This document shows positions 18,630 through 46,015 of a stretch of 64,000 bases of DNA, one piece after another; position 1 is the first letter of the stretch, and each line of letters opens with the position of its first letter. The notes under the pieces were generated by a model. That model was not told the origin of the DNA, made no database searches, and saw nothing but the letters and a program-made list of their open reading frames with translations. Location of the stretch: the NCBI GenBank assembly GCA_017983795.1, contig JAGOAS010000002.1, forward strand, positions 62,001-126,000. Direction: 5' to 3'. The DNA comes from Piscinibacter sp. Its GTDB lineage: Bacteria > Pseudomonadota > Gammaproteobacteria > Burkholderiales > Burkholderiaceae_C. The position numbers and the translations under genes were made by a program.

Positions 18630-18639
18630 GGAAACGAGC

Positions 18640-31173: not shown

Positions 31174-31250
31174 GTCGTGTATCGCCTCCACTGAGAGCGG
31201 CTCGGGCGTGGCCTGCCGGTCTGCGCGCCGCGCCACCGGTGGCACGGCGT

Positions 31251-31311
31251 CGGCCGGGCAGGCTGGGCGAGCACGGATATCGGGCCGCGCACAGCCCAGC
31301 CTGCCCGGCCG
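31251..31311. repeat. Perfect 18-bp inverted repeat between alpha and beta subunit genes
   Basis: The arms at 31251-31268 and 31294-31311 (starting CGGCCGGGCAGGCTGGGC) are perfect reverse complements around a 25-base loop. The structure lies in the only sizable gap of the oxidoreductase operon. It could form a strong RNA hairpin that attenuates transcription or sets subunit stoichiometry by protecting mRNA ends. There is no U-tract on the minus strand. Confidence 0.75.
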
Positions 31312-31358
31312 GCGCCGCGCTCCAGAGCGCCAAGACGAAGCATCGCGTTGCCCCTCAT

Positions 31359-32612
31359 TCAACTCACCCGCGACGCCACCGCGCCGAGATCGCGCAGCAT
31401 CGCCTCGGCCGCCGGCCCGCTGCGCTCGCCGCGGCGCTCGCGTTCGAGCTGGCGCTCGATCAGGCCCCAGTCCATGTCGAGGAAGGTGAGCGCCTCGATC
31501 TCGTCGCGCATCGCCTGCTCGAACACCTTGGCGAGCGAAGCCTGCGTGATCGCCCGCCCGCCGAGGCCTGCGACGACGGTGTAGCCGTGGCGGCGCGTGC
31601 CGCTCATCGCCATGCGCACGTCGTTGGCGAGGATGCCGCCCAGGCCCACCGAGAAACTCTTCTCCAGCACGATCACACGCTCGGCATGCACCAGCGCCTC
31701 GCGCACCGCCGCCAGCGGGAAGGGCCGGAACGAGGTGATGCCCAGCACGCCGATGCGGTGGCCGGCATCGCGCAGCGCGTCCACCGTGTCCTTGATCGTG
31801 CCCAGCACCGAGCCGAGCGCGACCACGATGGTGTGCGCATCCTCGCAGCGATAGCCGTGCAGCAGCCCGCCGCTGCTGCGGCCGAACTGGCGCTCGAAGT
31901 CGGCGGCGATCTGCGGGATCAGCTCGAGCGCGCGCAGCTGCCGCGCGTGCGCGAGATAGCGCACCTCGGCGAAAGCCTCGGGGCCCACCATCGCGCCGAT
32001 GGTCACCGGCTCGGCCGGATCGAGCACCTGGCGCGGCTGGTAGGGCGGCAGGAAGGCATCGACCTGTTCCTGCGTCGGCACATCGACGCGCTCGTAGGCG
32101 TGCGTGAGGATGAAGCCGTCCATGCACACCATCACCGGCAGGCTGACGGCTTCGGCGAGCCGGAAGGCCTGCACGTGCAGGTCGGCGGCTTCCTGGTTGG
32201 TCTCGGCGAAGAGCTGGATCCAGCCGCAGTCGCGCTGGCTCATCGCGTCGCTGTGGTCGTTCCAGATGTTGATCGGCGCGCCGATGGCGCGGTTGGCCAC
32301 CGTCATCACGATCGGCAGGCCGAGCCCGGCGGCGTTGTACACCGCCTCGGCCATGAACAGCAGGCCCTGGCTGGCGGTGGCGGTGTAGGCGCGCGCGCCC
32401 GCCGCCGAGGCGCCGATGGCCACGCTCATCGCGGCGAACTCGCTCTCGACGTTGATGAACTCGCAAGGGCTCAGCGCGCCCTCCTTCACCAGTTCGCCGA
32501 GCGCCTCGACGATGTGCGTCTGCGGCGAGATCGGGTAGGCGCAGATCACCTCCGGGCGCGCCAGCGCCACCGCCTCGGCAACGGCGCGCGAGCCTTCAAT
32601 CTGCTTGAGCAT
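31359..32612 (-). CDS. 2-oxoacid:acceptor oxidoreductase, alpha subunit
   Basis: The 417-residue subunit is the PorA/PadG-type alpha chain, with domain I (YPISPQTHIVEALGELV, FINVESEFAAMSVAIGAS, ARAYTATASQGLLFM) and domain II (EDAHTIVVALGSVLGTIKD, IGVLGITSFRPFP). It forms the active site with beta and shapes substrate binding; the TASQG loop and CoA-binding RPFP region are visible. Its start (32612) overlaps the gamma gene by 17 bases, with GGAG 7 bases upstream. The order gamma-alpha-beta differs from single-chain PFORs of anaerobes. Confidence 0.92.
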   Translation of the reverse strand: MLKQIEGSRAVAEAVALARPEVICAYPISPQTHIVEALGELVKEGALSPCEFINVESEFAAMSVAIGASAAGARAYTATASQGLLFMAEAVYNAAGLGLPIVMTVANRAIGAPINIWNDHSDAMSQRDCGWIQLFAETNQEAADLHVQAFRLAEAVSLPVMVCMDGFILTHAYERVDVPTQEQVDAFLPPYQPRQVLDPAEPVTIGAMVGPEAFAEVRYLAHARQLRALELIPQIAADFERQFGRSSGGLLHGYRCEDAHTIVVALGSVLGTIKDTVDALRDAGHRIGVLGITSFRPFPLAAVREALVHAERVIVLEKSFSVGLGGILANDVRMAMSGTRRHGYTVVAGLGGRAITQASLAKVFEQAMRDEIEALTFLDMDWGLIERQLERERRGERSGPAAEAMLRDLGAVASRVS

Positions 32613-33186
32613 GGGCCAACTCCCGCATTTCCTTGCGCACGTAGTCGTAGGCCTCGGCGGCGGCTGCGATGTTGGCCTCGGCGACCTTGCCGGTGAACTT
32701 GTCGCGGATCGCCTTGCCCACCGCCTCCAGCGTGATCAGCCCGCTGATGGCCGCGAAGCCGCCGAGCAGCGCCGCGTTGGGCAGCGGCCGGCCGAGGTGC
32801 GCCTTGGCGATCTCGCCGGCCGGCACGTTGACGAGGCGCTCGCGCCGGAAGCGCTGCACGAACTCGCCGACGCCGAGTTCGTCGAAGCTGCGCGCCGAGT
32901 TGATCAGCACGTAGCCCTCGGGCTTCAAGCCCTGGAAGACGTCGACCTGGTGCAGCAGCGTCGGGTCCTGGATGATCAGCGCGTCGGGCGCCATCACCGG
33001 CTCGCGCAGGCGGATCTCGCGCTCGGCGATGCGGCAGAAGGCCACCACCGGCGCGCCGGTGCGCTCCGAGCCGAAACTCGGGAAGGCCTGGGCGTGGCGG
33101 CCCTGCTCGAAGGCGGCGATCGAGAGCATCTCGGCGCCGGTCACCACGCCCTGCCCGCCACGGCCGTGGATGCGGATCTGGAACAT
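32596..33186 (-). CDS. 2-oxoacid:acceptor oxidoreductase, gamma subunit
   Basis: The 196-residue protein is the POR_gamma domain. It starts MFQIRIHGRGGQGVVTGAEM, the diagnostic N-terminus, and continues AFPSFGSERTGAPVVAFCRI and NAALLGGFAAISGLI. This domain contacts CoA and the rest of the heterotetramer. It is the first gene of the operon; AGGAGG sits 4 bases before the ATG at 33186. Upstream lies a near-consensus FNR/Anr box at the distance of a class II activation site, so oxygen-limited induction is likely. Confidence 0.93.
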   Translation of the reverse strand: MFQIRIHGRGGQGVVTGAEMLSIAAFEQGRHAQAFPSFGSERTGAPVVAFCRIAEREIRLREPVMAPDALIIQDPTLLHQVDVFQGLKPEGYVLINSARSFDELGVGEFVQRFRRERLVNVPAGEIAKAHLGRPLPNAALLGGFAAISGLITLEAVGKAIRDKFTGKVAEANIAAAAEAYDYVRKEMRELAHAQAD

Positions 33187-33215
33187 GCGCCCTCCTGCGC
33201 GGGTTCGACCGGCCC

Positions 33216-33257
33216 ATTGTTCGAGGCCGGGGGCATCGCAGGCTTGGCCTGCATCAA
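33216..33257 (-). promoter_or_regulatory. Promoter with FNR/Anr-like box for the 2-oxoacid oxidoreductase operon
   Basis: On the minus strand TTGATGCAGGCCAA occupies 33257-33244 and matches the FNR/Anr consensus TTGAT-N4-ATCAA at 8 of 10 fixed positions. A -10-like AACAAT at 33221-33216 would set transcription near 33209, placing the box centre 41.5 bases upstream, the classic class II spacing. The gene start is 23 bases further on. Confidence 0.55.
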
Positions 33258-33284
33258 GCGCGCGGCCCGTCGACAATCGCGGCC

Positions 33285-34172
33285 ATGCCCACCGGAATCG
33301 TCTACGCCGCCTCCGCCTACGTGCTGTGGGGCCTGTTCCCGCTCTACTTCAGCCACCTCGCCACCGTACCGGCCACCGAGGTGCTGGTGCACCGCATCGT
33401 CTGGTCGCTGCTGTTCGTGCTGGCGCTGCTGGCCTGGCGTCGCCACTGGGGCTGGCTCGGCGCCGCGCTGCGCCAGCCGCGCGTGCTGGGCGCCTTCGCG
33501 GTGAGCGCGCTGCTGCTCTCGTGCAACTGGCTGACCTACATCTGGGCCATCGCCAACGGCCACGTCATCGACGCCAGCCTGGGCTACTTCATCACCCCGC
33601 TGGTCAACGTGCTGCTCGGCTACAGCGTGCTGCACGAGCGGCCGCGCCGGCTGCAGTGGGCGGCCCTGGCGCTGGCGACGCTGGGCGTGATCTGGCTGAC
33701 CGCGCTGACCGGCCAGCTGCCGTGGATCGCGCTCGCGCTGGCCGGCAGCTTCGGCGCCTACGGGCTGCTGCGCAAGATCGCCCCGCTGGGCGCGCTCGAA
33801 GGCCTGACGCTGGAGACGCTGCTGCTGGCCGCGCCGGCGCTGGTCGCGCTCGCTCTGTGGTGGGGGCGCGGCCCGGCGAGCTTCCCGGCACCCGAGCTGT
33901 CGACCAACCTGCTGCTGATCGGCGTGGGGCCGCTCACCGCCGTGCCGCTGCTGCTGTTCGCCGCCGGTGCGCGGCGCATCTCGATGACCACGCTGGGCCT
34001 GCTGCAGTACATCGGCCCGTCGATCCAGTTCGCGCTCGGCGTGTGGCTGTTCAACGAGCCCTTCGGCGGGCAGCGCCTCGCAGGCTTCGGGCTGATCTGG
34101 GCCGCCTTGCTGCTCTACAGCGCCGACGGCTGGCGCAGCGCGCGGCGGCTACGGCTGCAGGTCGCCGGCTAG
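33285..34172 (+). CDS. rarD: EamA-family permease RarD
   Basis: The 295-residue protein has ten hydrophobic segments in two EamA repeats and the RarD N-terminal signature VYAASAYVLWGLFPLYF, followed by EVLVHRIVWSLLF and SCNWLTYIWAIANGHV. RarD proteins are inner-membrane transporters of the drug/metabolite superfamily. The name comes from chloramphenicol sensitivity in E. coli, but the substrate is not settled. It is divergent from the oxidoreductase operon and its 3' end overlaps the convergent DUF3501 gene by 24 bases. Confidence 0.93.
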   Translation: MPTGIVYAASAYVLWGLFPLYFSHLATVPATEVLVHRIVWSLLFVLALLAWRRHWGWLGAALRQPRVLGAFAVSALLLSCNWLTYIWAIANGHVIDASLGYFITPLVNVLLGYSVLHERPRRLQWAALALATLGVIWLTALTGQLPWIALALAGSFGAYGLLRKIAPLGALEGLTLETLLLAAPALVALALWWGRGPASFPAPELSTNLLLIGVGPLTAVPLLLFAAGARRISMTTLGLLQYIGPSIQFALGVWLFNEPFGGQRLAGFGLIWAALLLYSADGWRSARRLRLQVAG

Positions 34173-34730
34173 GCTGGCCAGCGTGTCCGGCGCGATCGTG
34201 AGGTGCGCCGGGTAGTTGGAGTGGTCGCAGCCGAGCTTGACGGCCGCGCCGGCACGCACCGCCTCGCGCGCGGCGCTCGGAAACTCGAAACGCAGGAAGT
34301 GCACCGAGGAGGTCTTCTCGGTGGTCTCGCGCTCCAGATCCTCGTCGGCGATCGCGTAGATGCGCGCGTGGCCTTCGACCTCGACGAACATGCGGTCCTC
34401 GATGTCGATCAGCCGCGCCAGCTCGCGCTTGCGCTCGTGCGCATCGGGGTACTCGATCAGCATGGTCGCCTTCCAGTTGCTGCCGTCGGGCACCAGCGGC
34501 GCATAGGCGTCGATCTCGGCCTGGATGCCGTCCTCCTCGAAGATCTTCTCGATGTGCAGCATCTCCTGGATCTGGCGGCGGATGGTCTGCTCGTCCTCGA
34601 ACTGCACGGTGACGTGCTCGCCGAGCGCCACGCTGCGCAGGCGCCGGTGCGCGATCACCTCGGGCTTGCTGCTCTTGCGGATCTTGGCGTAGGCCTCCAG
34701 CGTCAGGAGGCTGTCGCGGGTGATGCTCAT
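34149..34730 (-). CDS. DUF3501 family protein
   Basis: The 193-residue protein begins MSITRDSLLTLEAYAKIRK and shows EHVTVQFEDEQTIRRQIQEML, IEKIFEEDGIQAEI and FEFPSAAREAVRAGA, all of which match the DUF3501 family. Its function is not known. The gene commonly follows a rubrerythrin and an HdrD/GlpC-like Fe-S protein gene, and does so here with 19 bases to the latter, pointing to a role in peroxide handling or redox repair. The start at 34730 has GGAG 6 bases upstream. Its stop overlaps rarD. Confidence 0.86.
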   Translation of the reverse strand: MSITRDSLLTLEAYAKIRKSSKPEVIAHRRLRSVALGEHVTVQFEDEQTIRRQIQEMLHIEKIFEEDGIQAEIDAYAPLVPDGSNWKATMLIEYPDAHERKRELARLIDIEDRMFVEVEGHARIYAIADEDLERETTEKTSSVHFLRFEFPSAAREAVRAGAAVKLGCDHSNYPAHLTIAPDTLASLAGDLQP

Positions 34731-34749
34731 GCTCGTCTCCATCTCGGGT

Positions 34750-36099
34750 TCACACGCCGTAGGCGGTGCGCAGCAGCGTCAGCGGGTGCGCGATCTTCGT
34801 CGCCGGCGCGCCGTTGCCGGCCATGCCCTGGGCGATGTGGTGGGCGGCCATCGGGCAATCGGAACCGATGTAGTCGGGCTCGCCATTGGCCATGGCCTTG
34901 AAGACCGGCCGGCCGATCTTCATCGCGATCGCGTGATAAGGCTTCTTCACCCCGTAGGTGCCGGCGTGGCCGGAGCAGCGCTCCACGGTGTTGAGCTGCA
35001 GCGTCACCTTCTCGCCGATCAGCTTGAGCATCTCCTCGGTCTTCTTGCCGATCTTCTGCACGCGGCCGTGGCAGGGGATGTGGTAACTCACCTTGCCGAG
35101 CGGGTTCTTGAAATCGGTCTTGAGCAACCCGTCTTTATGGCGCGCCATCAGGTACTCGAAGGGGTCGAACATCGCCGCCTGCACCGCGGCCACGTCGGCA
35201 TCGCCGGGGAACAGCAGCGGCAGCTCCTGCTTGAACATCAGCGTGCATGAGGGCACGGCGCTGACGATCGCCCAGCCTTCCTTCGCGTACTTCGCCAGCA
35301 CCGGGATGTTGGCGTTCTTGTGCTTCTCCACGCCCTCGAGGTCACCGAGCTCGAGCTTGGGCATGCCGCAGCAGGATTCCTTCTCGACGATCACGTAGGG
35401 AATCTCGTTGTGCTCCAGCGAGGCGAGCAGATCGTGGCCGATGCCGGGCTCGTTGTAGTTGACGTAGCAGGTCGCGAAGATCGCCACCTTGCCGGGGCTG
35501 CGCTGGCCATCCTTCACCGCCGTGGCGCTGCCCTTCTTCTTCGCGCTCCAGCGGAAGCGCTTCGTGGCGAGCTCGGGCATCCAGGCCTTGCGGTCCACGT
35601 CGAGCACGCTCTCCATCACGCCGCGCGCCGCCTGGGTGCGGTTGATCGCGTTGACCGCCTGCACGACGACGGGAATGCCGGCGAACTGGCCGTGCACGTC
35701 GGTCGAGGCGAGGAACTTCTCGCTCGCCTTCACCTCGCCCTTCCTGAACTTGATCGCCTTGGCGCGCAGCATGGTGTGCGGGAAGTCGAGGTTCCAGGCG
35801 TGCGGCGGCACGTAGGGGCACTTGGTCAGGTAGCACAGGTCGCAGAGGTAGCACTGGTCGACCACCTTCCAGTAGTCGGCCTTGTTCACGCCGTGCACCT
35901 CGCCGTCGTCGGTGGCGTCGACGAGGTCGAACAGGTTCGGAAAACTCTGGCACAGGCTCACGCAGCGGCGGCAGCCGTGGCAGATGTCGAAGATGCGTTC
36001 CATCTCGGCGAGACACTTGGCCTCGTCGTAGAAGTCGGGGTTCTTCCAGTCGACGGCGTGGCGGGTGGGCGCTTCCAGGTTGCCTTCACGGATCGTCAT
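34750..36099 (-). CDS. HdrD/GlpC-like Fe-S oxidoreductase linked to rubrerythrin
   Basis: The 449-residue protein has two ferredoxin-type [4Fe-4S] motifs (CHGCRRCVSLCQSFP near residue 40 and CYLCDLCYLTKCPYVP near 85) and two C-terminal CCG-type domains (ATCYVNYNEPG...ESCCGMPKLE and PCHGRVQ...ERCSGHAG; the second has CSG in place of CCG). Such proteins move electrons between quinones or thiols and iron-sulfur partners. Placed between rubrerythrin and DUF3501, it is a good candidate for the reductant of rubrerythrin. GAGGAGG lies 7 bases before the ATG at 36099. Confidence 0.88.
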   Translation of the reverse strand: MTIREGNLEAPTRHAVDWKNPDFYDEAKCLAEMERIFDICHGCRRCVSLCQSFPNLFDLVDATDDGEVHGVNKADYWKVVDQCYLCDLCYLTKCPYVPPHAWNLDFPHTMLRAKAIKFRKGEVKASEKFLASTDVHGQFAGIPVVVQAVNAINRTQAARGVMESVLDVDRKAWMPELATKRFRWSAKKKGSATAVKDGQRSPGKVAIFATCYVNYNEPGIGHDLLASLEHNEIPYVIVEKESCCGMPKLELGDLEGVEKHKNANIPVLAKYAKEGWAIVSAVPSCTLMFKQELPLLFPGDADVAAVQAAMFDPFEYLMARHKDGLLKTDFKNPLGKVSYHIPCHGRVQKIGKKTEEMLKLIGEKVTLQLNTVERCSGHAGTYGVKKPYHAIAMKIGRPVFKAMANGEPDYIGSDCPMAAHHIAQGMAGNGAPATKIAHPLTLLRTAYGV

Positions 36100-36126
36100 G
36101 TGCTGTCCTCCTCGGTCCACCAATGA

Positions 36127-36149
36127 ACAAGGGGCACGAAGCCCCTTGT
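36127..36149 (-). terminator. Hairpin between rubrerythrin and the Fe-S gene
   Basis: A 9-bp perfect stem (ACAAGGGGC / GCCCCTTGT) with a 5-base loop lies 21 bases after the rubrerythrin stop, in the 70-base gap to the next gene. Only a short T-rich stretch follows, so it is likely a partial terminator or stabilising hairpin that gives more rubrerythrin than downstream products. Confidence 0.5.
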
Positions 36150-36169
36150 CCTGCGAGCGTCTTGCCGCT

Positions 36170-36592
36170 TCAGTCCACCAGCGCGTCGAGCGCCTTCTGG
36201 TAGCGGTTGGCGTGCGAGCGCTCGGCCTTGGCCAGCGTCTCGAACCAGTCGGCGATCTCGTCGAAGCCCTCGGCGCGCGCCGTCTTGGCCATGCCCGGGT
36301 ACATGTCGGTGTACTCGTGCGTCTCGCCGGCGACGGCCGCGGTCAGGTTCTGGCGCGAATTGCCGATCGGCAGGCCGGTGGCCGGATCGCCCGAGCCGTT
36401 CTCGAGAAACTCGAGGTGGCCGTGCGCGTGGCCGGTCTCGCCTTCCGCGGTGGAGCGGAACAGCGCGGCAACGTCGTTCTGCCCTTCCACGTCGGCCTTG
36501 TTTGCGAAGTAGAGGTACCGGCGGTTCGCCTGCGATTCACCCGCGAAGGCGTCCTTCAGGTTCTGCTCGGTCTTCGATCCTTTCAAGCCCAT
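36170..36592 (-). CDS. Rubrerythrin (ferritin-like diiron domain only)
   Basis: Rubrerythrin reduces hydrogen peroxide at a non-haem diiron centre. The 140-residue protein carries the four-helix ligands in [54 protein letters not shown] and [16 protein letters not shown]. It lacks the C-terminal rubredoxin domain of classic rubrerythrins, so electrons must come from another protein, plausibly the Fe-S protein encoded next. AGGAG sits 6 bases before the ATG at 36592. It is the first gene of a three-gene operon and suits a microaerobic or facultative life. Confidence 0.93.
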
Positions 36593-36765
36593 CTCGCTCT
36601 CCTGTCGTTGAGTTGAACCGAATCGGCCGCGCGCGCCATGGCGCATGTCTCGAACGCGGCACCCAGGTACGCTAACCCAGCGTCTCCACCCGGGCCAATA
36701 CAAAAGCTCAATGCAGTGGATTGGCTCAGCCTATGCCGGGCAGCTGTGTCATTGATTGATCAGGG

Positions 36766-37686: not shown

Positions 37687-37762
<76 letters not shown>

Positions 37763-37835: not shown

Positions 37836-39074
37836 TCAAGCGTCCGGCGCCCGACTGGCCCGCAGGGCATCGGCAGTGACCACGGCCGCACCCCTCGCCC
37901 ACACTTGCCGCGGCTGGCGCAAGGCCTGGGCATCGTCCCAGGGTGAGGCGCTCAGCAGCACCGCATCGAACGCAGCCCCCAGGGCCAGCGTGGCGTGCTC
38001 GGCGTCGAAGTGGCGCCGCGCCACCGAGGTGGCGGCGGCCAGCACCGACTGCAGGGGCCAGCCGGCTTCGAGGAAGCGGTCGATCTCGTCGAACATCGCC
38101 AGCCCATGCTCCACGCCCATGCTGCCGGCGTCGGTGCCCACCAGCACGCGCACGCCCAGCTCGCGGGCGATGCGCAGATGCTCGGCGTGCGCGTCCAGGA
38201 TGCGGCGCAGGTTGCCCACGGTGTTGGGGCTCCAGCCCACGGCCTGGGGCTGGGCCCACTGGAAGTGCACCGGGCAGAAGGTGGGCACCCAGGCGAGCTG
38301 GCGGTCGCGCATGCGGGCGAGATGGTCGCGGCTCATGAAGAAGCCGTGTTCGATGGAATCCACCCCCGCGGCCACCGCCACGTCCAGGCCTTTGACACCG
38401 CTGCAATGCGCAAGCACCTTGCGGCCAGCCGCGTGCGCGGCCTGCACCACCACGCCGGCGGCCTCGGCGCTGAACTGAGGTTCGTCGGTGACGGCACCGG
38501 CATCGAAGTCGATGATGCCGGTGAGGATGAGCTTGATCTCGTCGTTGGCCTGGGCCAGTTGCGCCACCGAGGCGCGGATGCTGGCCTCGTCGTCCACGTC
38601 GATGGCCATGAAGGCGCCGTAGCGCTTGGCGCGCTTCACGCCCAGGCCGCCGCTGCGCACCTGGGCCAGTCCGCTGCCCACCGCGCGGGCTTCATCGCGC
38701 ACCCGGTTGTTGATGCCGTGGCGGTCGCCGGCATCGCGCACCAGCGTCACGCCGCAGGCCAGGTTCTGGCGCGCACTGGCGCGGGCGGCGTCGGTGAGCG
38801 CCTCCAGGCCCTGCTTCAGGTGGGCCGAGCGCACGGCCTGCTCGGTGGGTTTGCCGTCGAGGAACAGATGCACATGGGCATCGACCAGGCCGGGCATCAG
38901 GAAGGCGCCGCGCGTCAGCGGCCAGCCCTGCTCGGCCAGCGCCGCGCCGTGGTCGCCCTCGGCCACGCCCGCCAGGCAGCCGTCCACCACCTTCAGCGTG
39001 GCGGGGCCGCGGCGCGTCTCGCCGTCGAACCAGTCGCCCACCACCAGGGCAAAGCGAGCGGGAGCGGTATTCAT
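37836..39074 (-). CDS. Amidohydrolase-superfamily protein of the corrinoid operon
   Basis: The 412-residue protein is of the imidazolonepropionase/prolidase-like branch. The metal motif MPGLVDAHVHLF gives the HxH pair, with further ligands in VLAHCSGVKG, DSIEHGFFM and LVGTDAGSMGVEHG. It is the last gene of the corrinoid operon and overlaps the methyltransferase gene by 4 bases (ATGA), so it probably belongs to the pathway. It could open a cyclic amide of the methyl-donor substrate or act on a cyclic folate intermediate; both are speculation. The start at 39074 gives MNTAPARFALVVGDW; a longer in-frame version would run through the upstream gene. Confidence 0.85.
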   Translation of the reverse strand: MNTAPARFALVVGDWFDGETRRGPATLKVVDGCLAGVAEGDHGAALAEQGWPLTRGAFLMPGLVDAHVHLFLDGKPTEQAVRSAHLKQGLEALTDAARASARQNLACGVTLVRDAGDRHGINNRVRDEARAVGSGLAQVRSGGLGVKRAKRYGAFMAIDVDDEASIRASVAQLAQANDEIKLILTGIIDFDAGAVTDEPQFSAEAAGVVVQAAHAAGRKVLAHCSGVKGLDVAVAAGVDSIEHGFFMSRDHLARMRDRQLAWVPTFCPVHFQWAQPQAVGWSPNTVGNLRRILDAHAEHLRIARELGVRVLVGTDAGSMGVEHGLAMFDEIDRFLEAGWPLQSVLAAATSVARRHFDAEHATLALGAAFDAVLLSASPWDDAQALRQPRQVWARGAAVVTADALRASRAPDA

Positions 39075-39958
39075 GCCTTGTAGAACTTGCGCACGGCTCG
39101 CAGCGCGTTGCTGCCGGTCTGCTGCAGGAAGTTCTGGTAGGTGGTGAGCACGTAGTGGCCGGCCGGCAGCTCGTCGTAGCCGCGCCAGGGCGTGCCCAGC
39201 ACGGTGTCGAAGCCCAGGGGAACCGTCAGCGTCAGGAAGGCGCATTCCAGCGCATGCTTGAGGTCGGAGCCGTCCACCGCCTTGGGCGGCAGTTGCTGGC
39301 CGATGTTGGACAGCCCGCCCATCATGTGCACGCCCTTCAGGGCCGGGTCTTGGCCGATCAGGCGGATGGCTTCCACCGTGCTGCGGTTCAGGCCCTCGGT
39401 GTCGGCGATGATGGCGCTGACCGACATGTCGACGATGATGTCGTCGGCCGGCATGCCGTAGTCGTTCATCAGCCGCAGCGCGCAGCGTCGGGCGGTGCCG
39501 TAGATCTCGTCGGCGCTCTTGTTGCCCTTGGCGACCATGGCGCCGTTCACCGCCTCGACCCGCTCGCTGGCCATCAGGATGACCTTGAACTTGTAGGGGC
39601 CGTACAGCTCCATCAGGTCCCAGCGGTGCTCGGTGATGGAGTTGACCAGCGGCAGCGCGCCATGGGCCTTGGCCGGGTCGTAGGCCTGCAGGCAGACCTC
39701 CTGCACCTTCTTGCTGGGGAAATCGAACGACAGCGGCACCGTGGTCACCTCCTGGATGGCGCGGATGACGGTGGCCATCCACTCGGTGTCGGTGAGCGCG
39801 CGGGCGCCGATGTTGACGTTGAGCCAGCTCGCGCCCGCCTCGGCCTGCTTGACGGCCAGGGCCCGGATGCCGGGGATGTCGGAGTTGTCGAACAGCGCCT
39901 TGGTGCTCTTGAAGCCCGGGTTGATGCGCTCGCCGATGATGCGGATGTTGAAGCTCAT
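39071..39958 (-). CDS. Methylcobamide:tetrahydrofolate methyltransferase (pterin-binding, AcsE/CmuB-like)
   Basis: The 295-residue TIM-barrel protein belongs to the DHPS-like pterin-binding family. It opens IRIIGERINPGFKSTKALF and has SWLNVNIGARALTDTEWM, VPLSFDFPSKKVQE, LPLVNSITEHRWDLM (pterin-contact Asn) and DIIVDMSVSAII. AcsE in acetogens and CmuB in chloromethane degraders move a methyl group between a corrinoid and tetrahydrofolate; with the MetF-like first gene, the direction here is probably onto folate. It starts 3 bases after the activase stop and overlaps the amidohydrolase gene. It is too short and too solitary to be MetH. Confidence 0.9.
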   Translation of the reverse strand: MSFNIRIIGERINPGFKSTKALFDNSDIPGIRALAVKQAEAGASWLNVNIGARALTDTEWMATVIRAIQEVTTVPLSFDFPSKKVQEVCLQAYDPAKAHGALPLVNSITEHRWDLMELYGPYKFKVILMASERVEAVNGAMVAKGNKSADEIYGTARRCALRLMNDYGMPADDIIVDMSVSAIIADTEGLNRSTVEAIRLIGQDPALKGVHMMGGLSNIGQQLPPKAVDGSDLKHALECAFLTLTVPLGFDTVLGTPWRGYDELPAGHYVLTTYQNFLQQTGSNALRAVRKFYKA

Positions 39959-39961
39959 GTT

Positions 39962-41818
39962 CTAGAAACCGATGTGTTGGAGGAAGGTCTTCTGGAAATC
40001 GCTGCGCGAGCTCAGCTCCACATAGCGGCAGTCGGTGGCCAGGCGCGCGGCACGCTCGCGGCGCGTGCGCGAGGCCAGCATCTGCTGCACGCCCAGGCCG
40101 GCGGCATTGCCCACCTGGGTGAAGCGCTCGCGCGGCAGGTCGGGCAGCAGGCCGATGGCCACGCAGCTCTCGACGCCGATGTAGGCGCCGAAGGCCCCGG
40201 CGATGACGAAGCGGTCGATGCGCGTTTCATCGAGCCCGGCCTCGGCGGCCAGCAGCTTGACGCCGGTGCGTATGGCCGACTTGGCGAGTTGCACGGCGCG
40301 CACGTCGTGCTGGGTGAAACGCACGGCCGGCACGTCGGCGCTTTCCTCGGCCAGGGTGATGGCCTTGACGCCATCGAGCGTGCCCACCTCGGGCACCCGG
40401 CCCACGATGCGGCCGCGCGCGTCGACCCAGCCGGAGCGCACGAAGGCCGCCAGCGCGTCCAGCACGCCCGAGCCGCACAGGCCGATGGGCGGGCCGCCGC
40501 CGATGACCTGCAGCCTGAGCCCGTCGTCGGTGATGGCCACGCGCTCGATGGCGCCTTCGGCCGCCCGCATGCCGCTGGCGATGTGGCCGCCCTCCAGCGC
40601 CGGGCCCGAGGGGCAGGAGGACGACCAGATGCGCGCCTCGCGCCCATCGTGCCGCACCAGGCTGATCTCGGTGTTGGTGCCGATGTCCATCACCAGGCTG
40701 ACGCCAGCCCGCGCCCAGAGCGGCTCGGTGGCCAGCATGGCGCCGACGTGGTCGCCGCCCACGAAACCGCCCACGCTGGCCGCCAGGTGCAGGTTGGCGC
40801 CGGCGGCCAGCTTCAGGCCCAGGCTGCGCGCCGGCACGTCCAGCGCCTCGTTCATGGCCGACACGAAGGGCGCACGCCCCAGTTGCGACACCGGCCAGCC
40901 GGCCAGCAGATGCTGCATGGCGGTGTTGCCGCAGACCACGGCATCGGCGATGTCGCTGGCCTGCGCGCCCACCGCCCGCGCCAGGTCATGGGCCAGGGCG
41001 TTGATGGCGTTCACGGCGGCCTGGCGCAGCGTCTCGGCGGCGCCGGGCTCCTTGATGGCGTGGTTGATGCGGCTGATCAGGTCGGCGCCCCAGGCCACCT
41101 GCGGGTTCTCCAGGCCCAGGCTGGCCAGGCGCTGGCCGGTCTTCAAGTCGAGCAGGAAGGCGGCGGCATTGGTGGTGCCCAGGTCCACCGCCAGGCCCAG
41201 CAGCGGTGCCTCGGGGCGGGCGAAGCCGATGATGCGCGGGACGCCGCCGTGGGTTGCGCTGCGCAGGCTCACGCGCCAGTCGTGGGCGCGCAGCAGGCCG
41301 GGCAGCTCGGCGGCCGCGGCCCAGTCCACCGCCACGGCGCGGGGCTGCCCCTGCCGGGCCAGGGCGCGGCGCGCGCGGTCCACGTCGCCGAGCAGATCCT
41401 GCAGGCTGGCGGGGGGCAGCTGCAGGTCCTGCGCAGCCACCAGCGGTTCGCAAGCCAGGGCCTGGTCTTCGCCGCCGGTGCGCACGTCGGCCCGCACCAC
41501 GGGTGCCAGCGAGCGCGGCGCCACGTCCGCCACCAGGTCGGAGCGCGGCTGCACGCAGCAGGCGCGCAGCCACTTCTTGTGCGAAGAATGCTCGGACTCC
41601 TTGCCCTCGCGGTGCACGCGGCCTTCTTGCACCCGCACCATGCAACTGCCGCAGGTGCCGCGCCCGCCGCAAGCACCGACGATGCGCAGGCCATGGCGGC
41701 GCGCGGCGGCGAACAGCGTTTCGTTCTCGGCGCAATCGATGTCGCGGTCGAGCGCCGGGAAGCGCAGCGCGTGCACGCGCGGCGGGCTCAGTGCCAGATC
41801 GTGGTGTGCGTTGGCCAC
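39962..41818 (-). CDS. Reductive activator of corrinoid protein (ASKHA, DUF4445, [2Fe-2S])
   Basis: The 618-residue protein has an N-terminal plant-type [2Fe-2S] domain (ACGGRGTCGSCMVRVQEG, then RACCVQ) and a linker. A C-terminal DUF4445/ASKHA ATPase follows, with GLAVDLGTTNAAAFLLD, VMDIGTNTEISLV, GLCGSGVLDALAAF and VIAGAFGAYIG. Proteins of this build (RACE, RamA/AcsV-like) use ATP to reduce accidentally oxidised Co(II) back to Co(I) on the corrinoid protein. The start is a GTG at 41818, 9 bases after the previous stop. Its presence strongly supports a working corrinoid methyl-transfer system. Confidence 0.9.
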   Translation of the reverse strand: MANAHHDLALSPPRVHALRFPALDRDIDCAENETLFAAARRHGLRIVGACGGRGTCGSCMVRVQEGRVHREGKESEHSSHKKWLRACCVQPRSDLVADVAPRSLAPVVRADVRTGGEDQALACEPLVAAQDLQLPPASLQDLLGDVDRARRALARQGQPRAVAVDWAAAAELPGLLRAHDWRVSLRSATHGGVPRIIGFARPEAPLLGLAVDLGTTNAAAFLLDLKTGQRLASLGLENPQVAWGADLISRINHAIKEPGAAETLRQAAVNAINALAHDLARAVGAQASDIADAVVCGNTAMQHLLAGWPVSQLGRAPFVSAMNEALDVPARSLGLKLAAGANLHLAASVGGFVGGDHVGAMLATEPLWARAGVSLVMDIGTNTEISLVRHDGREARIWSSSCPSGPALEGGHIASGMRAAEGAIERVAITDDGLRLQVIGGGPPIGLCGSGVLDALAAFVRSGWVDARGRIVGRVPEVGTLDGVKAITLAEESADVPAVRFTQHDVRAVQLAKSAIRTGVKLLAAEAGLDETRIDRFVIAGAFGAYIGVESCVAIGLLPDLPRERFTQVGNAAGLGVQQMLASRTRRERAARLATDCRYVELSSRSDFQKTFLQHIGF

Positions 41819-41827
41819 ATCAGGCTC

Positions 41828-42508
41828 TCAGGCGGCGTTCTTCACCAGATTGCAACGCTCGCGCGAGCGGCAGTGGTCACAGCGCGACCAGGTCTGCACC
41901 GGCAGCGCCAGGCCCACGCCCTGCACGATGGAGGTGGACTTGGTCGGGTTCATCATCAGGGTGCGGGTCAGGGCCACACCGATGTCGGCCGCCCCGGCCA
42001 GTTGCAGCACCGTGTGCTGGGCCTGCAGTTGCAGGCCCGGGTCGCCGGCGCGCAGTTCGCCGGCCACCGTCAGGCCCTGCTTGCGGGCCTCGGCCCATAG
42101 GCGGTCCTGCACCCGGCGCGAGAGCGCCAACAGCAGTTCGTTGCCCAGGCTGTCCAGCGCCACGCCCAGCGCAGCGCGACGCTGCGCGAACAACTCACCC
42201 ACGTGCTGCTCCAGCGCGTCGCCGATGGTGGCCACCGCGCAAGCCACGGCCGTGAGACGGCCCGAGGAAGGCACCAGCCAGGGCGCCTGCAGGCGTTGCC
42301 CGTCCATGCACAGCGAGCCGGCTTCGCCCGGCTCGCCTTCGAGCGGCACGATGCGCCAGCTGGCCCGCGTTTGCAGCAGGCCCTGCTCGCGCACCAGATC
42401 CATCGCCTGGGCGCGCAGGGCCACCAGCTTGTCGCGGCGCGCCACCTGCGGCGGCACCCGGCCGGCGGCCACATCGCGCAGCACGTCCACGTCGGTGAGG
42501 ACGGTCAT
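41828..42508 (-). CDS. Small protein resembling the MetH activation domain
   Basis: The 226-residue product resembles stand-alone proteins annotated after the B12-dependent methionine synthase activation domain, which occur in acetogen corrinoid clusters. Supporting features are TAVACAVATIGDALEQHV, the central LDSLGNELLLALSRRVQDRL helix, MMNPTKSTSIVQGVG (compare the PSKS motif of MetH) and a C-terminal CDHCRSRERCNL that could bind metal. A helper role in corrinoid reactivation or methyl transfer is inferred from context. AGGA precedes the ATG at 42508. It lies between the methyltransferase and activase genes. Confidence 0.7.
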   Translation of the reverse strand: MTVLTDVDVLRDVAAGRVPPQVARRDKLVALRAQAMDLVREQGLLQTRASWRIVPLEGEPGEAGSLCMDGQRLQAPWLVPSSGRLTAVACAVATIGDALEQHVGELFAQRRAALGVALDSLGNELLLALSRRVQDRLWAEARKQGLTVAGELRAGDPGLQLQAQHTVLQLAGAADIGVALTRTLMMNPTKSTSIVQGVGLALPVQTWSRCDHCRSRERCNLVKNAA

Positions 42509-42539
42509 GGTCGGTCCTGGTGTGCGAAGCGGGAGGACC

Positions 42540-43844
42540 TCAACCGGCGTACTTGCGCGCGGCGTCGAACATGGCGCGCACATTGGCCACCGGCGTCTCG
42601 TCGGGGATGCCGAAGGCGCCGTCGAGGATGAGCTTGCCGCCCTGGTTCCAGACCTTGTCGACCAGGTGCTTCACGGCGGCGTCCACGTCCTGCGGCGTGC
42701 CGGTGGTCAGCATCGAGGGCGAGAGGTTGCCGCGCAGGGCCACACGGTCGCCCAGCACCTCGAAGGCCTTGACCATGTCGGTGCGCTCGAACCAGTAGAT
42801 GCACTTGCCGGCGGGGATGTCCTTGATCACCTCCAGCCGCTTGGTGCAGTCCGACTCCCACATGGGCATGGGGATGAGGTCGGCCTCGATCAGCTCCAGC
42901 ATCATGCGGCGGAACGGCGGCCACCAGAACTCCTCGAACTGCTTCGGGCTCATGAAGGCATCGGGCGCCCAGTGGGTAGGGATGAAGACGATGGGATTGC
43001 CCGAGAGCCTGGCGTTCTTGATGGTCATGCGCGCCAGGAAGATGGCGGCCTTGTCCAGCACCTGCTTGAGCTTGTCCTTGTGGCGGTACAAGTCTTTCAT
43101 CATGCCGGTGGCGCCACGGAAGTAGTCGGCGATGAAGTCGTAGGGCGATACGGAGTTGACCCCGTTGAACAGCGGGTAGCCGGCCGCGTTGATCTGCTGC
43201 ACCCAGTCGAGGTGATGGCTGAACATCACGTTCACTTCTTCGGCGGCGGCCACGATCCTGTCGAACGACTCGCGCACTTCGGGCAGCGCAAAGGGGCGTA
43301 TGCCGTGCACCAGGCGGAAGTAGTGCAGGCCCAGGAAATCGGGCAGCTTGGCAAAGCCTTCGAAGGCGCCGGCCACGCGCGGCAGGTAGGTGTGGATGTA
43401 GAAGCCGGTGGGGTCGAAGAGAAACTCGTCGTACTCCTCGGCCTTCATGTACTCGCGGTCCAGGTACTGGAAGGGCTGCATCTCGCCCACGCCATGGCCC
43501 GGCCACTGCAGTTGCTTGAAGTCCAGCTTTTCGAGCGCATTGCCCAGGGCGGTGCCCATGAGCAGCGGGAACACGCCATCGGGCTCGAACTCGGTGACCA
43601 CGTCCAGGCAGGCCTTCTTGGCCTTGCCGTAGTCGTACATCAGCTCCTTGAAGGTGAGGCCGCCGTGCGTGGCGGGCCAGAAGAAGCTGTGCATGCCCAC
43701 GGGCATGCGGTCGGGCTGCTCGAGCCGCACGCAGGCCATGATGCGTGCCCAGCGCGCGTCGTAGGCGGCCTTGGCGGCGGCGCTCTGCTCGTAAGGGCCG
43801 AGCATGGTGGAGCCTTCGGCCAAGGCTTGGTTCTGCGCGTTCAC
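42540..43844 (-). CDS. UroD-type substrate:corrinoid methyltransferase
   Basis: The 434-residue protein belongs to the uroporphyrinogen-decarboxylase superfamily branch of methyltransferase I enzymes (MtaA/CmuA/vanillate-demethylase type). Family pieces are FPLLMGTALGNALEK, GYPLFNGVNSVSPYDFI, FIPTHWAPDAFMSPKQFEEFWWPPFRRM and GGKLILDGAFGIPDETPVANV. A likely metal site is MWESDCTKRLE plus a later cysteine, in place of the HxCG of MtaA. It would move a methyl group from an unknown donor to the corrinoid protein whose gene it overlaps (GTGA at 43841-43844). The start is that GTG. It is not HemE, since the HemE N-terminus is absent. Confidence 0.87.
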   Translation of the reverse strand: MNAQNQALAEGSTMLGPYEQSAAAKAAYDARWARIMACVRLEQPDRMPVGMHSFFWPATHGGLTFKELMYDYGKAKKACLDVVTEFEPDGVFPLLMGTALGNALEKLDFKQLQWPGHGVGEMQPFQYLDREYMKAEEYDEFLFDPTGFYIHTYLPRVAGAFEGFAKLPDFLGLHYFRLVHGIRPFALPEVRESFDRIVAAAEEVNVMFSHHLDWVQQINAAGYPLFNGVNSVSPYDFIADYFRGATGMMKDLYRHKDKLKQVLDKAAIFLARMTIKNARLSGNPIVFIPTHWAPDAFMSPKQFEEFWWPPFRRMMLELIEADLIPMPMWESDCTKRLEVIKDIPAGKCIYWFERTDMVKAFEVLGDRVALRGNLSPSMLTTGTPQDVDAAVKHLVDKVWNQGGKLILDGAFGIPDETPVANVRAMFDAARKYAG

Positions 43845-44506
43845 GCCGCCACCCCCAGCCAGTTGCGGCACAGGCCCACGGCTTCCACGGCGTTGACGCC
43901 GAAGGCATCGGCCCCGGTGTAGGAACGCACGGTCTCGTCGATCTGGCCGCCGCCGATCATGATCTTGAAGTCGCTGCGCAGGCCGGCGGCGTCGAAGGCG
44001 GTGATGGTTTCCTTCATCGAGTCGAAAGCCAGCGTGAGGAAGCCCGACAGGCCCACCACGTCGGGCTGGTAGGCCTTGATCTCGTCGATGAAGGTCTGCA
44101 CCGACACGTCCACGCCGATGTCCTTCACCTCGAAGCCGTTGATGTCGAGCATGAAGGTGACGATGTTCTTGCCGATGTCGTGCAGGTCGCCGTGCACGGT
44201 GCCGATCAGCACCTTGCCCAGCTTGGCCGCGCCGCCGCCATCGCCCTGCTTGATCAGCGGCTTGGCGATGGCGCCCACGTTGTCCAGCATCTCGCCGGCC
44301 AGCACCAGTTCGGGCAGGAAATATTCGCCCTCCTCGAAGCGCTTGCCCACGATGTCCATGGCCTCGCGGCACAGGTCCAGCACGTGCATCGGGTTCACGC
44401 CCTCCTCCAGCAGCATGCGCGTGGCCAGGGGCACGGCGTCGTCCTCGTTCATATCGGCCAACCACTCGACGAGCTGGCGCTCCTGGTCGTTCTGGGCAAT
44501 GGACAT
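43841..44506 (-). CDS. Corrinoid (B12-binding) methyl carrier protein, MtaC-like
   Basis: The 221-residue carrier has an N-terminal helical cap (B12-binding_2, about residues 10-95, with VLAGEMLDNVGAIAKPLI) and a Rossmann B12 domain. Its GTVHGDLHDIGKN motif provides the DxHxxG histidine that ligates cobalt, followed by VGLSGFLTLAFDSMKET and IMIGGGQIDE. It shuttles the methyl group from the UroD-type methyltransferase to the folate methyltransferase. GGAG is 8 bases before the ATG at 44506. It is translationally coupled to the methyltransferase gene. Confidence 0.94.
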   Translation of the reverse strand: MSIAQNDQERQLVEWLADMNEDDAVPLATRMLLEEGVNPMHVLDLCREAMDIVGKRFEEGEYFLPELVLAGEMLDNVGAIAKPLIKQGDGGGAAKLGKVLIGTVHGDLHDIGKNIVTFMLDINGFEVKDIGVDVSVQTFIDEIKAYQPDVVGLSGFLTLAFDSMKETITAFDAAGLRSDFKIMIGGGQIDETVRSYTGADAFGVNAVEAVGLCRNWLGVAA

Positions 44507-44542
44507 GGCGGGGTCTCCGGTGTGTGAGTCGGGGGAGGAAGT

Positions 44543-46015
44543 TCAGGCCACGGCGGCCGCCTGCGGGGCCTGGCGCAGGCCGGACTCGGCGATGATTTGC
44601 GCCAGTGCGGCCTCGTTCTTGTGGCCCATCAGGTGCACGCCGGCCACGCCTTCGATGCGCCGCAGGGCGTGGATGGTCTCGATGGCCACGCGCTGCCCTT
44701 CAGCCTTCTGGTCGGCCGCGGCGGCGATGCGCTCGGTGACGGCCTGGGGCACATGCACGCCGGGCACGTGCTCGGCCATCCAGCGCAGCGCCTTGGCGCT
44801 GGCCAGGGTGCCCACGCCGACGATGATGGCGGCGCGCTCGTGCAGGCCACGCGCACGCACCTCGCGCATGAAGTCCTCGATCAGCCCCAGGTCGAAGCAG
44901 AACTGGGTCTGGATGAAGCGCGCGCCGGCGTCGATCTTGCGTTCCAGGTTGGCCACCCGGTCGGCGTAGGGCGGAACGAAGGGGTTGGCGGTGGCGCCCA
45001 GGAAGAGCCGCGGCGCCTGCTCCAGCCTGCGGCCCGAGGCGTACTCACCGCGTTCGCTCATGCCTCGCAGGATGTGCAGCAGGTTGACCGCGTCGAGGTC
45101 GAATACCGGCTTGGCCTCGGGGTGGTCGCCCTGGCTCACGTCGTCGCCGGTCAGGCACAGCACGTTGCGCACGCCCAGGGCCGCAGCGCCCAGCACGTCG
45201 CCCTGCAGCGCGATGCGGTTGCGGTCGCGGCAGCCCACCTGGCACACCGGCGTGTGGCCGGCGGCCGCCAGCACCGAGGCCGCCGCCACGCTGGACATGT
45301 GGCAGTTGGCACCCGCGCCATCGGTGATGTTGATGGCGTCCACCAGACCGGCGAAGCGGTCAGCCCGCTGCAGCAGCGCGGCCGGGTCCGGCGAGTCGGG
45401 TGGGGCGATCTCCACCGTGACGATGAAACGGCCGCTGCGCTGCCATTCCTGGCAGGCCTGCTCGAGCGGACCACTCGGCCGCACCGGATCCATGGGCTCG
45501 AGCGGCCCGGCCGCTGCACCGGTCTGCACCTTGTCCGGAGCGGCGGCATGTTTGGCCTGATCGACCGAGATCAACCGGATCCAGTTCGATTGACCGGCAC
45601 GGCGCCGATCCAGCGGCGCGACGCGCTCGCGCCAACTGGGCCGGTGCTCACCCCGGGCGCCTCCTTGCATGCGCACATCACCCTCGCCCGCCTCCACCCA
45701 GGTGCAGCGCTGCTCGGGCCGCAGTTCGCAATGGCCGTTGGCGCGCACGCCGCCGCAAGGGCCGTTGCGCATCTGCTTGCCACAGGCCATGGGACAGGCC
45801 ATGCCGGTGACCGAGAGCGCGCAATCGCCGCACATCTGGCACCCGAAAAACAGGCTCTTGGCGGCGCGCTCTGCCGGGGTCAGCCAGCGGCCGAAGCGCG
45901 CCACGCCCACCCGCCGGGCCAGAGGCGCCAACCAGGGCGCCAGCCGGGCCGCCGCGGCATAGACGCGGGCCAGGCCCCGGGCGTGGCGCAGCGACCAGTC
46001 GCGCAATGCCCTCAT
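44543..46015 (-). CDS. MetV-MetF fusion: methylenetetrahydrofolate reductase with N-terminal Cys-rich domain
   Basis: The 490-residue protein joins a Cys-rich MTHFR_C/MetV-like domain (about residues 50-110: FFGCQMCGDCALSVTG, CPMACGKQMRNGPCGG) to a MetF TIM barrel (about 185-480: FIVTVEIAPPDSPDPAALL, NCHMSSVAAASVL, VLCLTGDDVSQGDHPEAK, GARFIQTQFCFDLGL). MetF interconverts methyl- and methylene-tetrahydrofolate; MetV is a separate partner in acetogens. As the operon leader it would oxidise the methyl-folate made by the downstream proteins. A Pro/Ala-rich linker (about 115-185) separates the domains. The ATG at 46015 lacks a strong ribosome-binding site. Confidence 0.88.
   Translation of the reverse strand: MRALRDWSLRHARGLARVYAAAARLAPWLAPLARRVGVARFGRWLTPAERAAKSLFFGCQMCGDCALSVTGMACPMACGKQMRNGPCGGVRANGHCELRPEQRCTWVEAGEGDVRMQGGARGEHRPSWRERVAPLDRRRAGQSNWIRLISVDQAKHAAAPDKVQTGAAAGPLEPMDPVRPSGPLEQACQEWQRSGRFIVTVEIAPPDSPDPAALLQRADRFAGLVDAINITDGAGANCHMSSVAAASVLAAAGHTPVCQVGCRDRNRIALQGDVLGAAALGVRNVLCLTGDDVSQGDHPEAKPVFDLDAVNLLHILRGMSERGEYASGRRLEQAPRLFLGATANPFVPPYADRVANLERKIDAGARFIQTQFCFDLGLIEDFMREVRARGLHERAAIIVGVGTLASAKALRWMAEHVPGVHVPQAVTERIAAAADQKAEGQRVAIETIHALRRIEGVAGVHLMGHKNEAALAQIIAESGLRQAPQAAAVA

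What the first reader, a model, noticed from the sequence alone, without database searches (positions are those of the whole stretch)
37836..46015. Complete corrinoid-dependent methyl-transfer operon in a Calvin-cycle betaproteobacterium
Seven tightly spaced minus-strand genes encode a MetV-MetF fusion, an MtaC-like corrinoid protein, a UroD-type methyltransferase, a MetH-activation-like protein, a RACE/RamA-type activase, an AcsE/CmuB-like folate methyltransferase and an amidohydrolase. Spacings are -4 to +36 bases, with GTGA and ATGA overlaps. All parts needed to take a methyl group from a donor, pass it over cobalt to tetrahydrofolate and start its oxidation are present, which is typical of acetogens and chloromethane degraders. 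In aerobic relatives, methoxyaromatics are usually demethylated by VanAB monooxygenase or GcvT-like LigM/DesA. The substrate is not given by the sequence; this exact seven-gene set is not one I know as characterised.
Basis: partly seen in the sequence, partly recalled or inferred. Interest (0 to 1): 0.88.

Follow-up and report, generated by a model that had tools for sequence, protein, structure and literature searches.

The report
Seven-gene B12-dependent methyl-removal operon
A bacterium with genes for nitrate respiration and CO2 fixation carries a seven-gene, vitamin-B12-based operon that most likely strips methyl groups from lignin-type aromatic compounds without oxygen; in a number of relatives the same operon sits beside the oxygen-using enzyme for that job, which suggests a paired toolkit for life with and without air.

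Summary
They form a conserved module: of 45 related loci with enough flank, 29 hold all seven genes, 19 in the window's order, in Beta- and Alphaproteobacteria, Desulfuromonadales, Terriglobia and Actinomycetes, mostly MAGs. Known motifs are conserved. The UroD-type protein's nearest solved relative is CdmB, the chloromethane methyltransferase of Acetobacterium, but six polar residues conserved in this family are neutral in CdmB. The substrate clue is genomic: a VanA-type Rieske gene lies in 15 of 49 tested loci, 0.26 expected, in some directly in line (21 bases from VanB-like to metVF in L041). Best reading: an O2-independent O-demethylase for vanillate-like methoxyaromatics that passes the methyl group to tetrahydrofolate for oxidation. 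The host also has a VanA with VanB-like and GntR genes, NarG, RuBisCO and a second MetF, but not beside this operon. Corrinoid O-demethylation is known; this module and its pairing with VanAB did not appear in the listings of ten literature searches. Substrate and amidohydrolase role are untested.

The parts
44543..46015 (-). MetV-MetF fusion: N-terminal MetV (DUF5981) Cys-rich domain, C-terminal methylene-THF reductase; proposed methyl-THF oxidation
   Evidence: Pfam DUF5981 4.7e-20 and MTHFR 6.1e-37; eight N-terminal Cys conserved in 41 orthologues; the host has one other MTHFR-family gene, at C21
43841..44506 (-). Corrinoid protein (methyl carrier), MtbC/MtgC-like
   Evidence: B12-binding 3.5e-22 and B12-binding_2 7.2e-14; NCBIfam matches all below cut-off; D107-L-H109-D-I-G112 conserved in 63 orthologues (cobalt-ligand role recalled)
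42540..43805 (-). UroD-type substrate:corrinoid methyltransferase (MTI); alternative GTG start at 43843
   Evidence: URO-D 9.8e-26; nearest PDB sequence CdmB 9rui, 2e-37; AlphaFold pLDDT 96.1, fold match to HemE and MtaA; 87% identity to L041
41828..42508 (-). MetH activation-domain-like protein with C-terminal Cx2Cx5C, proposed corrinoid reactivation partner
   Evidence: profile of 43 orthologues matches 1j6r at 1.6e-12; fold match 1j6r E 1.3e-10; three Cys invariant
39962..41818 (-). RACE-type ATP-dependent corrinoid activase with 2Fe-2S domain
   Evidence: RACo_C_ter 2e-69, Raco_middle 1.5e-44, Fer2 1.3e-11; C50, C56, C59, C87 conserved in 50 orthologues
39071..39958 (-). Methyl-corrinoid:tetrahydrofolate methyltransferase (MTII, AcsE/MeTr-like)
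   Evidence: Pterin_bind 4.4e-10; MeTr 2yci 1.2e-10, with D79, N106, D177, N218 aligned to identical residues and conserved in 54 orthologues
37836..39074 (-). Amidohydrolase, prolidase/ochratoxinase-like, role unknown
   Evidence: Amidohydro_1 2e-23; nearest PDB 2p9b 'possible prolidase' 1.9e-24; H68, H70, K182, H224, H244, D316 (numbering) conserved in 39 orthologues; present in 29 of 45 loci with enough flank
37687..37762 (+). tRNA-Ala(CGC) just downstream of the operon (context, not a working part)
   Evidence: ARAGORN

Best explanation
The operon encodes an oxygen-independent, four-component O-demethylase for methoxylated aromatic acids of the vanillate kind, with a dedicated outlet for the methyl group. 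The UroD-type MTI binds the aryl methyl ether and hands its methyl group to cob(I)alamin on the corrinoid protein, freeing the phenol (for vanillate, protocatechuate). The AcsE-like MTII moves the methyl group to tetrahydrofolate; the MetV-MetF fusion oxidises methyl-THF to methylene-THF, which FolD and the formate branch take further for energy or biosynthesis. RACE, with ATP and a low-potential donor, and the MetH-activation-like protein restore cob(I)alamin after accidental oxidation. It probably serves the host under low oxygen or nitrate respiration, while VanAB does the same job with oxygen. Shown: gene content, conserved residues, predicted folds of two parts, the conserved operon, VanA-type, LigAB, PobA and FolD neighbours in some relatives, host gene inventory. 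Inferred: substrate, direction of methyl flow, conditions of use, the amidohydrolase's role (perhaps hydrolysis of an aromatic amide, or a folate step).
For: All four components plus MetVF in one operon with conserved residues. A VanA-type gene inside the locus in 15 of 49 loci tested, 0.26 expected from the 59 VanA_C copies in those genomes (rounded genome sizes; related loci make the P of about 1e-21 nominal; on a quick UroD tree with many weak forks the VanA-nearby state needs at least 9 gains or losses). In line with the operon: VanA-VanB-metVF... in L041, VanA-GntR-VanB-metVF... in L050, L051, L066, L083, L096, VanA-metVF 4 bases apart in L073 and L075, amido-GntR-VanA-VanB in L062 (VanB and GntR by similarity). 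L041, at 87% UroD identity the nearest aligned relative, has a VanA 64% identical to the host's VanA; the nearest solved relative of L041's VanA is dicamba O-demethylase. LigA and LigB in L046, L050, L051, L062, L087 by clustering (L050 LigB checked by profile); PobA in L051 (680 bits, over cut-off). FolD in 6 of 82 loci searched, directly beside the operon on its strand in L042, L047, L076, L081, pointing to oxidation through folate. Host: VanA, three LigB-family genes, NarG 2213 bits, DBI_PRT (CobT), FTHFS, second MetF.
Against: In the window no aromatic gene adjoins the operon: upstream lie a crotonase, a PaaX-like regulator and an AidB-like dehydrogenase. 34 of the 49 loci have no VanA-type gene, and 15 of the 49 genomes have none at all. 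Most VanA-type neighbours are 32-47% identical to the host VanA and may act on other compounds; NCBIfam names none of the seven tested a vanillate demethylase (best, far below cut-off: 4beta-methylsterol monooxygenase). L047, L053, L055 and L071 have VanA on the other strand. The nearest solved protein is a haloalkane enzyme. No assay or transcript data.
Confidence: 0.74

Rival explanations
1. A chloromethane/haloalkane dehalogenase of the Cdm kind: MTI funnels a halomethane to cob(I)alamin and the methyl group goes to tetrahydrofolate.
For: CdmB is the nearest solved sequence (2e-37); Cdm has separate MTI, corrinoid protein and MTII as here (PMC13222342).
Against: Family positions D221, H272, D276, E311, R317, D337 (98-100% conserved in 60 rows) read S, W, N, Q, L, N in CdmB, whose cavity is described as hydrophobic; other conserved positions such as R15, D26, R27, D217, R224, D232 are shared. 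VanA-type, LigAB and PobA genes recur or occur nearby; halogen genes were not searched for. Identity to CdmB is 31% at best.
Confidence: 0.1
2. Demethylation of another methyl donor (quaternary amine, methylated sulfur compound, N-methyl compound), with the amidohydrolase acting on the substrate or its product.
For: Corrinoid protein scores best, below cut-off, to methylamine and glycine-betaine families; the amidohydrolase travels with the module in 29 of 45 loci; MTI paralogues exist (five in G430); ABC substrate-binding (9 loci) and TRAP DctP-like (7 loci) genes, named by eye and of unknown substrate, recur in the flanks.
Against: Known amine systems use MtmB/MtbB/MttB-type MTIs (recalled), not UroD-type; the VanA link. 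Betaine or amine transporters were not searched for.
Confidence: 0.11
3. Reverse use: methyl-THF made by MetVF is passed over cobalt to an aromatic acceptor, as in anaerobic estrogen methylation (Emt).
For: MTHFR normally reduces (recalled); Emt is a corrinoid system of denitrifying bacteria with RACE and C1 genes nearby (PMC7448270 passages).
Against: EmtA is described as MtmB-related, not UroD-type, and the donor there is SAM; here FolD and VanA-type genes, which fit catabolism, adjoin in relatives; the host has a second MetF for biosynthesis.
Confidence: 0.05

Closest known systems
CdmBCA chloromethane system, Acetobacterium dehalogenans (PMC13222342)
   Same: UroD-type MTI, separate corrinoid protein, MTII; its MTI is the nearest solved sequence
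   Different: The cdmBCA cluster as described has three genes, without MetVF fusion, activation-like protein or amidohydrolase, and its activase is encoded elsewhere; six family-conserved polar residues differ; the abstract reports homologues from anaerobes, and a word-start search found no 'proteobacteri' or 'Pseudomonadota' in the main text
Acetogen and archaeal O-demethylases MtvB, OdmB, VdmB, MtoB
   Same: UroD-superfamily MTI in a corrinoid system acting on methoxyaromatics (as told in PMC13222342)
   Different: Here mainly in Pseudomonadota, with fused MetVF and an amidohydrolase, and in some loci beside VanA-type genes; the sequences of these enzymes were not available for a direct comparison
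VanAB/VanR Rieske vanillate O-demethylase
   Same: Same presumed substrate class; in-line neighbours in some relatives; present in the host on another contig
   Different: Oxygenase family that yields formaldehyde (recalled, and PMC6974649 passages); unrelated proteins
Cmu chloromethane system of aerobic methylotrophs
   Same: Corrinoid route from a methyl donor to folate in Proteobacteria (recalled)
   Different: CmuA is MTI and corrinoid protein in one (PMC13222342); here they are separate genes

Membership tests
Corrinoid-dependent methyltransferase system (MTI, corrinoid protein, MTII, activase) | All four components encoded together | tested here: met
Corrinoid-dependent methyltransferase system (MTI, corrinoid protein, MTII, activase) | DxHxxG motif of the corrinoid protein, folate-site residues of MTII, 2Fe-2S cysteines of the activase conserved | tested here: met
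   (residue roles recalled)
UroD-superfamily aromatic O-demethylases (MtvB/OdmB/VdmB/MtoB) | MTI of the UroD superfamily, distinct from HemE | tested here: met
   the host's other URO-D gene at C32 scores 423 bits to the family
UroD-superfamily aromatic O-demethylases (MtvB/OdmB/VdmB/MtoB) | Clusters with the named enzymes in a phylogeny | not testable with these tools
   their sequences could not be fetched; only partial CdmB was placed, on a long branch
UroD-superfamily aromatic O-demethylases (MtvB/OdmB/VdmB/MtoB) | Transfers methyl from a methoxyaromatic | not testable with these tools
   needs an assay; context only
Cdm haloalkane system | CdmB-type residues in the substrate cavity | tested here: inconclusive
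   six family-conserved polar positions differ by alignment, but which residues line the cavity was not modelled and the paper calls tunnel residues poorly conserved
Cmu system | MTI and corrinoid domain fused in CmuA | tested here: not met
   separate genes
Type 1 mlp gene clusters (PMC10418091) | Mlp2 + Mlp3 in one cluster, no H4folate methylase | tested here: not met
   one UroD-type gene and an MTII present; definition
Estrogen methyltransferase Emt | MtmB-related catalytic subunit EmtA | tested here: not met
   MTI is URO-D family; EmtA description

The most novel reading that the evidence does not exclude
Facultative Pseudomonadota carry a paired oxic/anoxic O-demethylation unit: one regulon (VanR/GntR type) holds both the Rieske VanAB, which needs O2 and makes formaldehyde, and a corrinoid MTI system, which needs none and sends the methyl group straight to tetrahydrofolate through a fused MetV-MetF; the conserved amidohydrolase is a new step of this route. 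The module would be the missing enzyme behind anaerobic demethylation of vanillate by nitrate-respiring proteobacteria (Taylor 1983, strain PN-1).
Probability: 0.42. Interest if true: 0.82.

Novelty: new variant of a known kind. Interest (0 to 1): 0.66.

Why it matters
Methyl ethers are a large share of the substituents of lignin aromatics (recalled). Corrinoid O-demethylases are described from acetogens and some archaea, whereas proteobacteria are usually credited with oxygen-dependent or GcvT-like demethylases (recalled). A conserved corrinoid module in Pseudomonadota with nitrate-respiration and CO2-fixation genes, linked to VanA-type genes more often than chance, could explain anoxic demethylation in groundwater and sediments, would give a formaldehyde-free route for lignin conversion, and gives genes to test for an old observation, anaerobic vanillate catabolism by a pseudomonad (title only seen), for which I recall no identified gene. 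In R. palustris, anaerobic growth on syringate needed vanAB plus unidentified genes (PMC6974649 passages); VanA-GntR-VanB precedes this operon in five loci.

Tried and rejected
Estrogen methyltransferase (Emt): considered because of denitrifying betaproteobacteria; rejected since EmtA is described as MtmB-related. Type 1 mlp clusters: rejected. Chloromethane: kept as a rival, lowered and by context. Plasmid-borne spread: only two weak homologues in the plasmid collection, Sporomusa termitida and Acetoanaerobium noterae, so no sign of plasmid carriage there. Island at tRNA-Ala: operon GC 70.2% against 71.1% for the window; I ran no search for an integrase; the adjacent crotonase gene has no match at E 1e-80 in 7 of 7 same-genus genomes, so an empty site could not be read. 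HdrA-like electron partner for MetVF: found after the operon in L047 and L068 only (2 of 82 loci); the window hit at 28655-30214 belongs to a GltD-like flavoprotein of a POR cluster. Structure library: no CdmB entry appeared among the 50 rows shown by the fold search, HemE and MtaA came first. Profile names for neighbours: NCBIfam gave no vanillate-demethylase name to seven VanA-type proteins and only sub-cut-off reductase names to two VanB-like ones; the aldehyde and alcohol dehydrogenases downstream in L041 matched no equivalog over cut-off and are not used. Literature: the listings and abstract starts of ten searches showed no description of this seven-gene set or its pairing with VanAB; I did not read every listed paper. 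[quoted passage not shown]

Rows dropped: searches used 49 of 80 loci (limit of 50, one locus per genome); one search used 45 of 80 loci (at least 2.8 kb left and 4.8 kb right of UroD); one search used 60 UroD rows of the 88 found, and its change count used only loci longer than 9 kb. The list of 15 VanA loci was typed in; tblastn gives the same 18 of 80.
Full report
Observation. Junctions are +36, +35 (or a GTGA overlap with the alternative start), +31, +9, +3 and an ATGA overlap. The fourth protein has no Pfam hit over cut-off by itself, but the profile of 43 orthologues finds the methionine synthase activation domain (1j6r, 1.6e-12) and its AlphaFold model (pLDDT 93.2) matches the same domain (E 1.3e-10). 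The MTI model (pLDDT 96.1) has the HemE/MtaA fold.

Conservation. Of 45 with at least 2.8 kb left and 4.8 kb right of the UroD gene, 29 hold all seven genes and 19 hold them in the window's order. By record titles they come from Beta- and Alphaproteobacteria, Desulfuromonadales, Terriglobia and Actinomycetes. Distribution is patchy: a strong homologue (E below 1e-20) was found in 1 of 99 other relatives (none of 7 in the genus) and in 1 of 368 others of the class sample. Eight of the 45 lack the RACE gene nearby, five of them showing only UroD.

Function of the parts. Corrinoid D107/H109/G112, RACE C50/C56/C59/C87, eight MetV cysteines, MTII D79/N106/D177/N218 (aligned to identical residues of MeTr) and amidohydrolase H68/H70/K182/H224/H244/D316 are each conserved in at least 95% of 63, 50, 41, 54 and 39 orthologues (residue roles are recalled). 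So the chain from MTI to tetrahydrofolate is complete in parts. The host has one other MetF-family gene, FTHFS and CobT-family genes. FolD occurs in 6 of 82 loci searched and lies directly beside the operon on its strand in L042, L047, L076 and L081 (L047 FolD confirmed by Pfam), which fits oxidation of the methyl group; no chance estimate was made for FolD.

Substrate. The nearest solved sequence is CdmB (2e-37). In CdmB, D221, H272, D276, E311, R317 and D337 of this family (98-100% conserved in 60 rows) are S, W, N, Q, L and N, while other conserved positions (R15, D26, R27, D217, R224, D232) are shared. An unassigned UroD-type protein of a Sporomusa plasmid also departs at most of the six, so the residues are no general mark of UroD-type methyltransferases. 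CdmB does not demethylate methoxyaromatics, while its relatives MtvB, OdmB, VdmB and MtoB do (PMC13222342). Clustering the flanking reading frames showed a VanA-type Rieske protein in 18 of the 80 loci; eight of eight tested carry VanA_C and Rieske domains. VanA_C occurs 59 times in 49 host genomes; 0.26 copies would fall inside the loci by chance, and 15 of the 49 loci have one. The genes are often in line: VanB-like to metVF 21 bases in L041, VanA to metVF 4 bases in L073 and L075, VanA-GntR-VanB before metVF in L050, L051, L066, L083, L096, GntR-VanA-VanB after the amidohydrolase in L062 (gaps read from its printed bases; GntR and VanB named by similarity to the host's genes). In L047, L053, L055 and L071 VanA is on the opposite strand. 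L051 also has LigA, LigB and PobA (680 bits, over its cut-off), and L047 has a formaldehyde dehydrogenase-like gene (587 bits, below its cut-off of 637) near VanA. L041's Rieske protein is 64% identical to the host's VanA, and its nearest solved relative is dicamba O-demethylase. On the quick UroD tree, with 20 of 60 inner branches weak, the VanA-nearby state needs at least nine gains or losses, so the link is unlikely to be one inherited event; the nominal P still ignores kinship.

Host. A RuBisCO large-subunit gene lies just outside the window, NarG scores 2213 bits, three LigB-family genes exist, and VanA, a VanB-like and a GntR gene lie together on contig C20; a second VanA_C match lies on C45. 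The host thus looks like a nitrate-respiring autotroph able to use aromatic acids; this is inference from genes.

Against. The window operon itself has no aromatic neighbour; 34 of the 49 loci have no VanA-type gene nearby and 15 of the 49 genomes none at all. NCBIfam gave none of seven VanA-type neighbours a vanillate-demethylase name. The tree could not include the characterised O-demethylases; CdmB was partial and on a long branch. No expression or enzyme data. The amidohydrolase resembles amide hydrolases and peptidases, is missing in 16 of 45 loci and has no assigned step.

Literature. Seen: PMC13222342 (abstract, parts 1-3 of 11, passages), PMC10418091 (abstract, first part of results), PMC7448270, PMC11306105, PMC6974649, PMC10805028 (passages), PMC10602745 (abstract, passages). 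Taylor 1983 was seen only as a title in a reference list; its content is recalled. The listings of the searches named in Tried and rejected showed no paper on this seven-gene set.

Verdict. A new variant of a known kind: a corrinoid methyl-transfer module, most likely an O-demethylase, of mainly Pseudomonadota, with fused MetV-MetF and an amidohydrolase, and in a good part of its loci paired with VanA-type genes. Confidence 0.74 for the mechanism and substrate class.

Noticed in passing
window 28538-33276, minus strand: A pyruvate/2-oxoacid:ferredoxin oxidoreductase-type cluster (POR alpha 31359-32612 by profile; neighbours read by eye as beta and gamma) with a GltD-like NAD(P)-binding flavoprotein with 4Fe-4S sites; a possible source of low-potential electrons for RACE.
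   Followed up: partly
window 34149-36703, minus strand: Rubrerythrin-like ORF (by eye), CCG-domain protein and DUF3501 protein in a row, reminiscent of an oxygen-stress set.
   Followed up: no
G430 (L036-L040): A class-level relative carries five UroD-type MTIs; only one of the five fetched loci holds the corrinoid/activase/MTII set, as if several MTIs shared one core.
   Followed up: partly
L071 5345-17432: Two tandem copies of the corrinoid-UroD-activation-RACE-MTII set in one locus; the first MTII match comes in two pieces, perhaps a frameshift.
   Followed up: no
L047 16824-21248 and L068 17582-21244: Large HdrA-like flavoproteins (name by eye; FAD and Fer4 domains) follow the operon, possible electron acceptors for MetVF.
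   Followed up: partly
window 17208-19836, plus strand: DUF1800-DUF1501 gene pair of unknown function.
   Followed up: no
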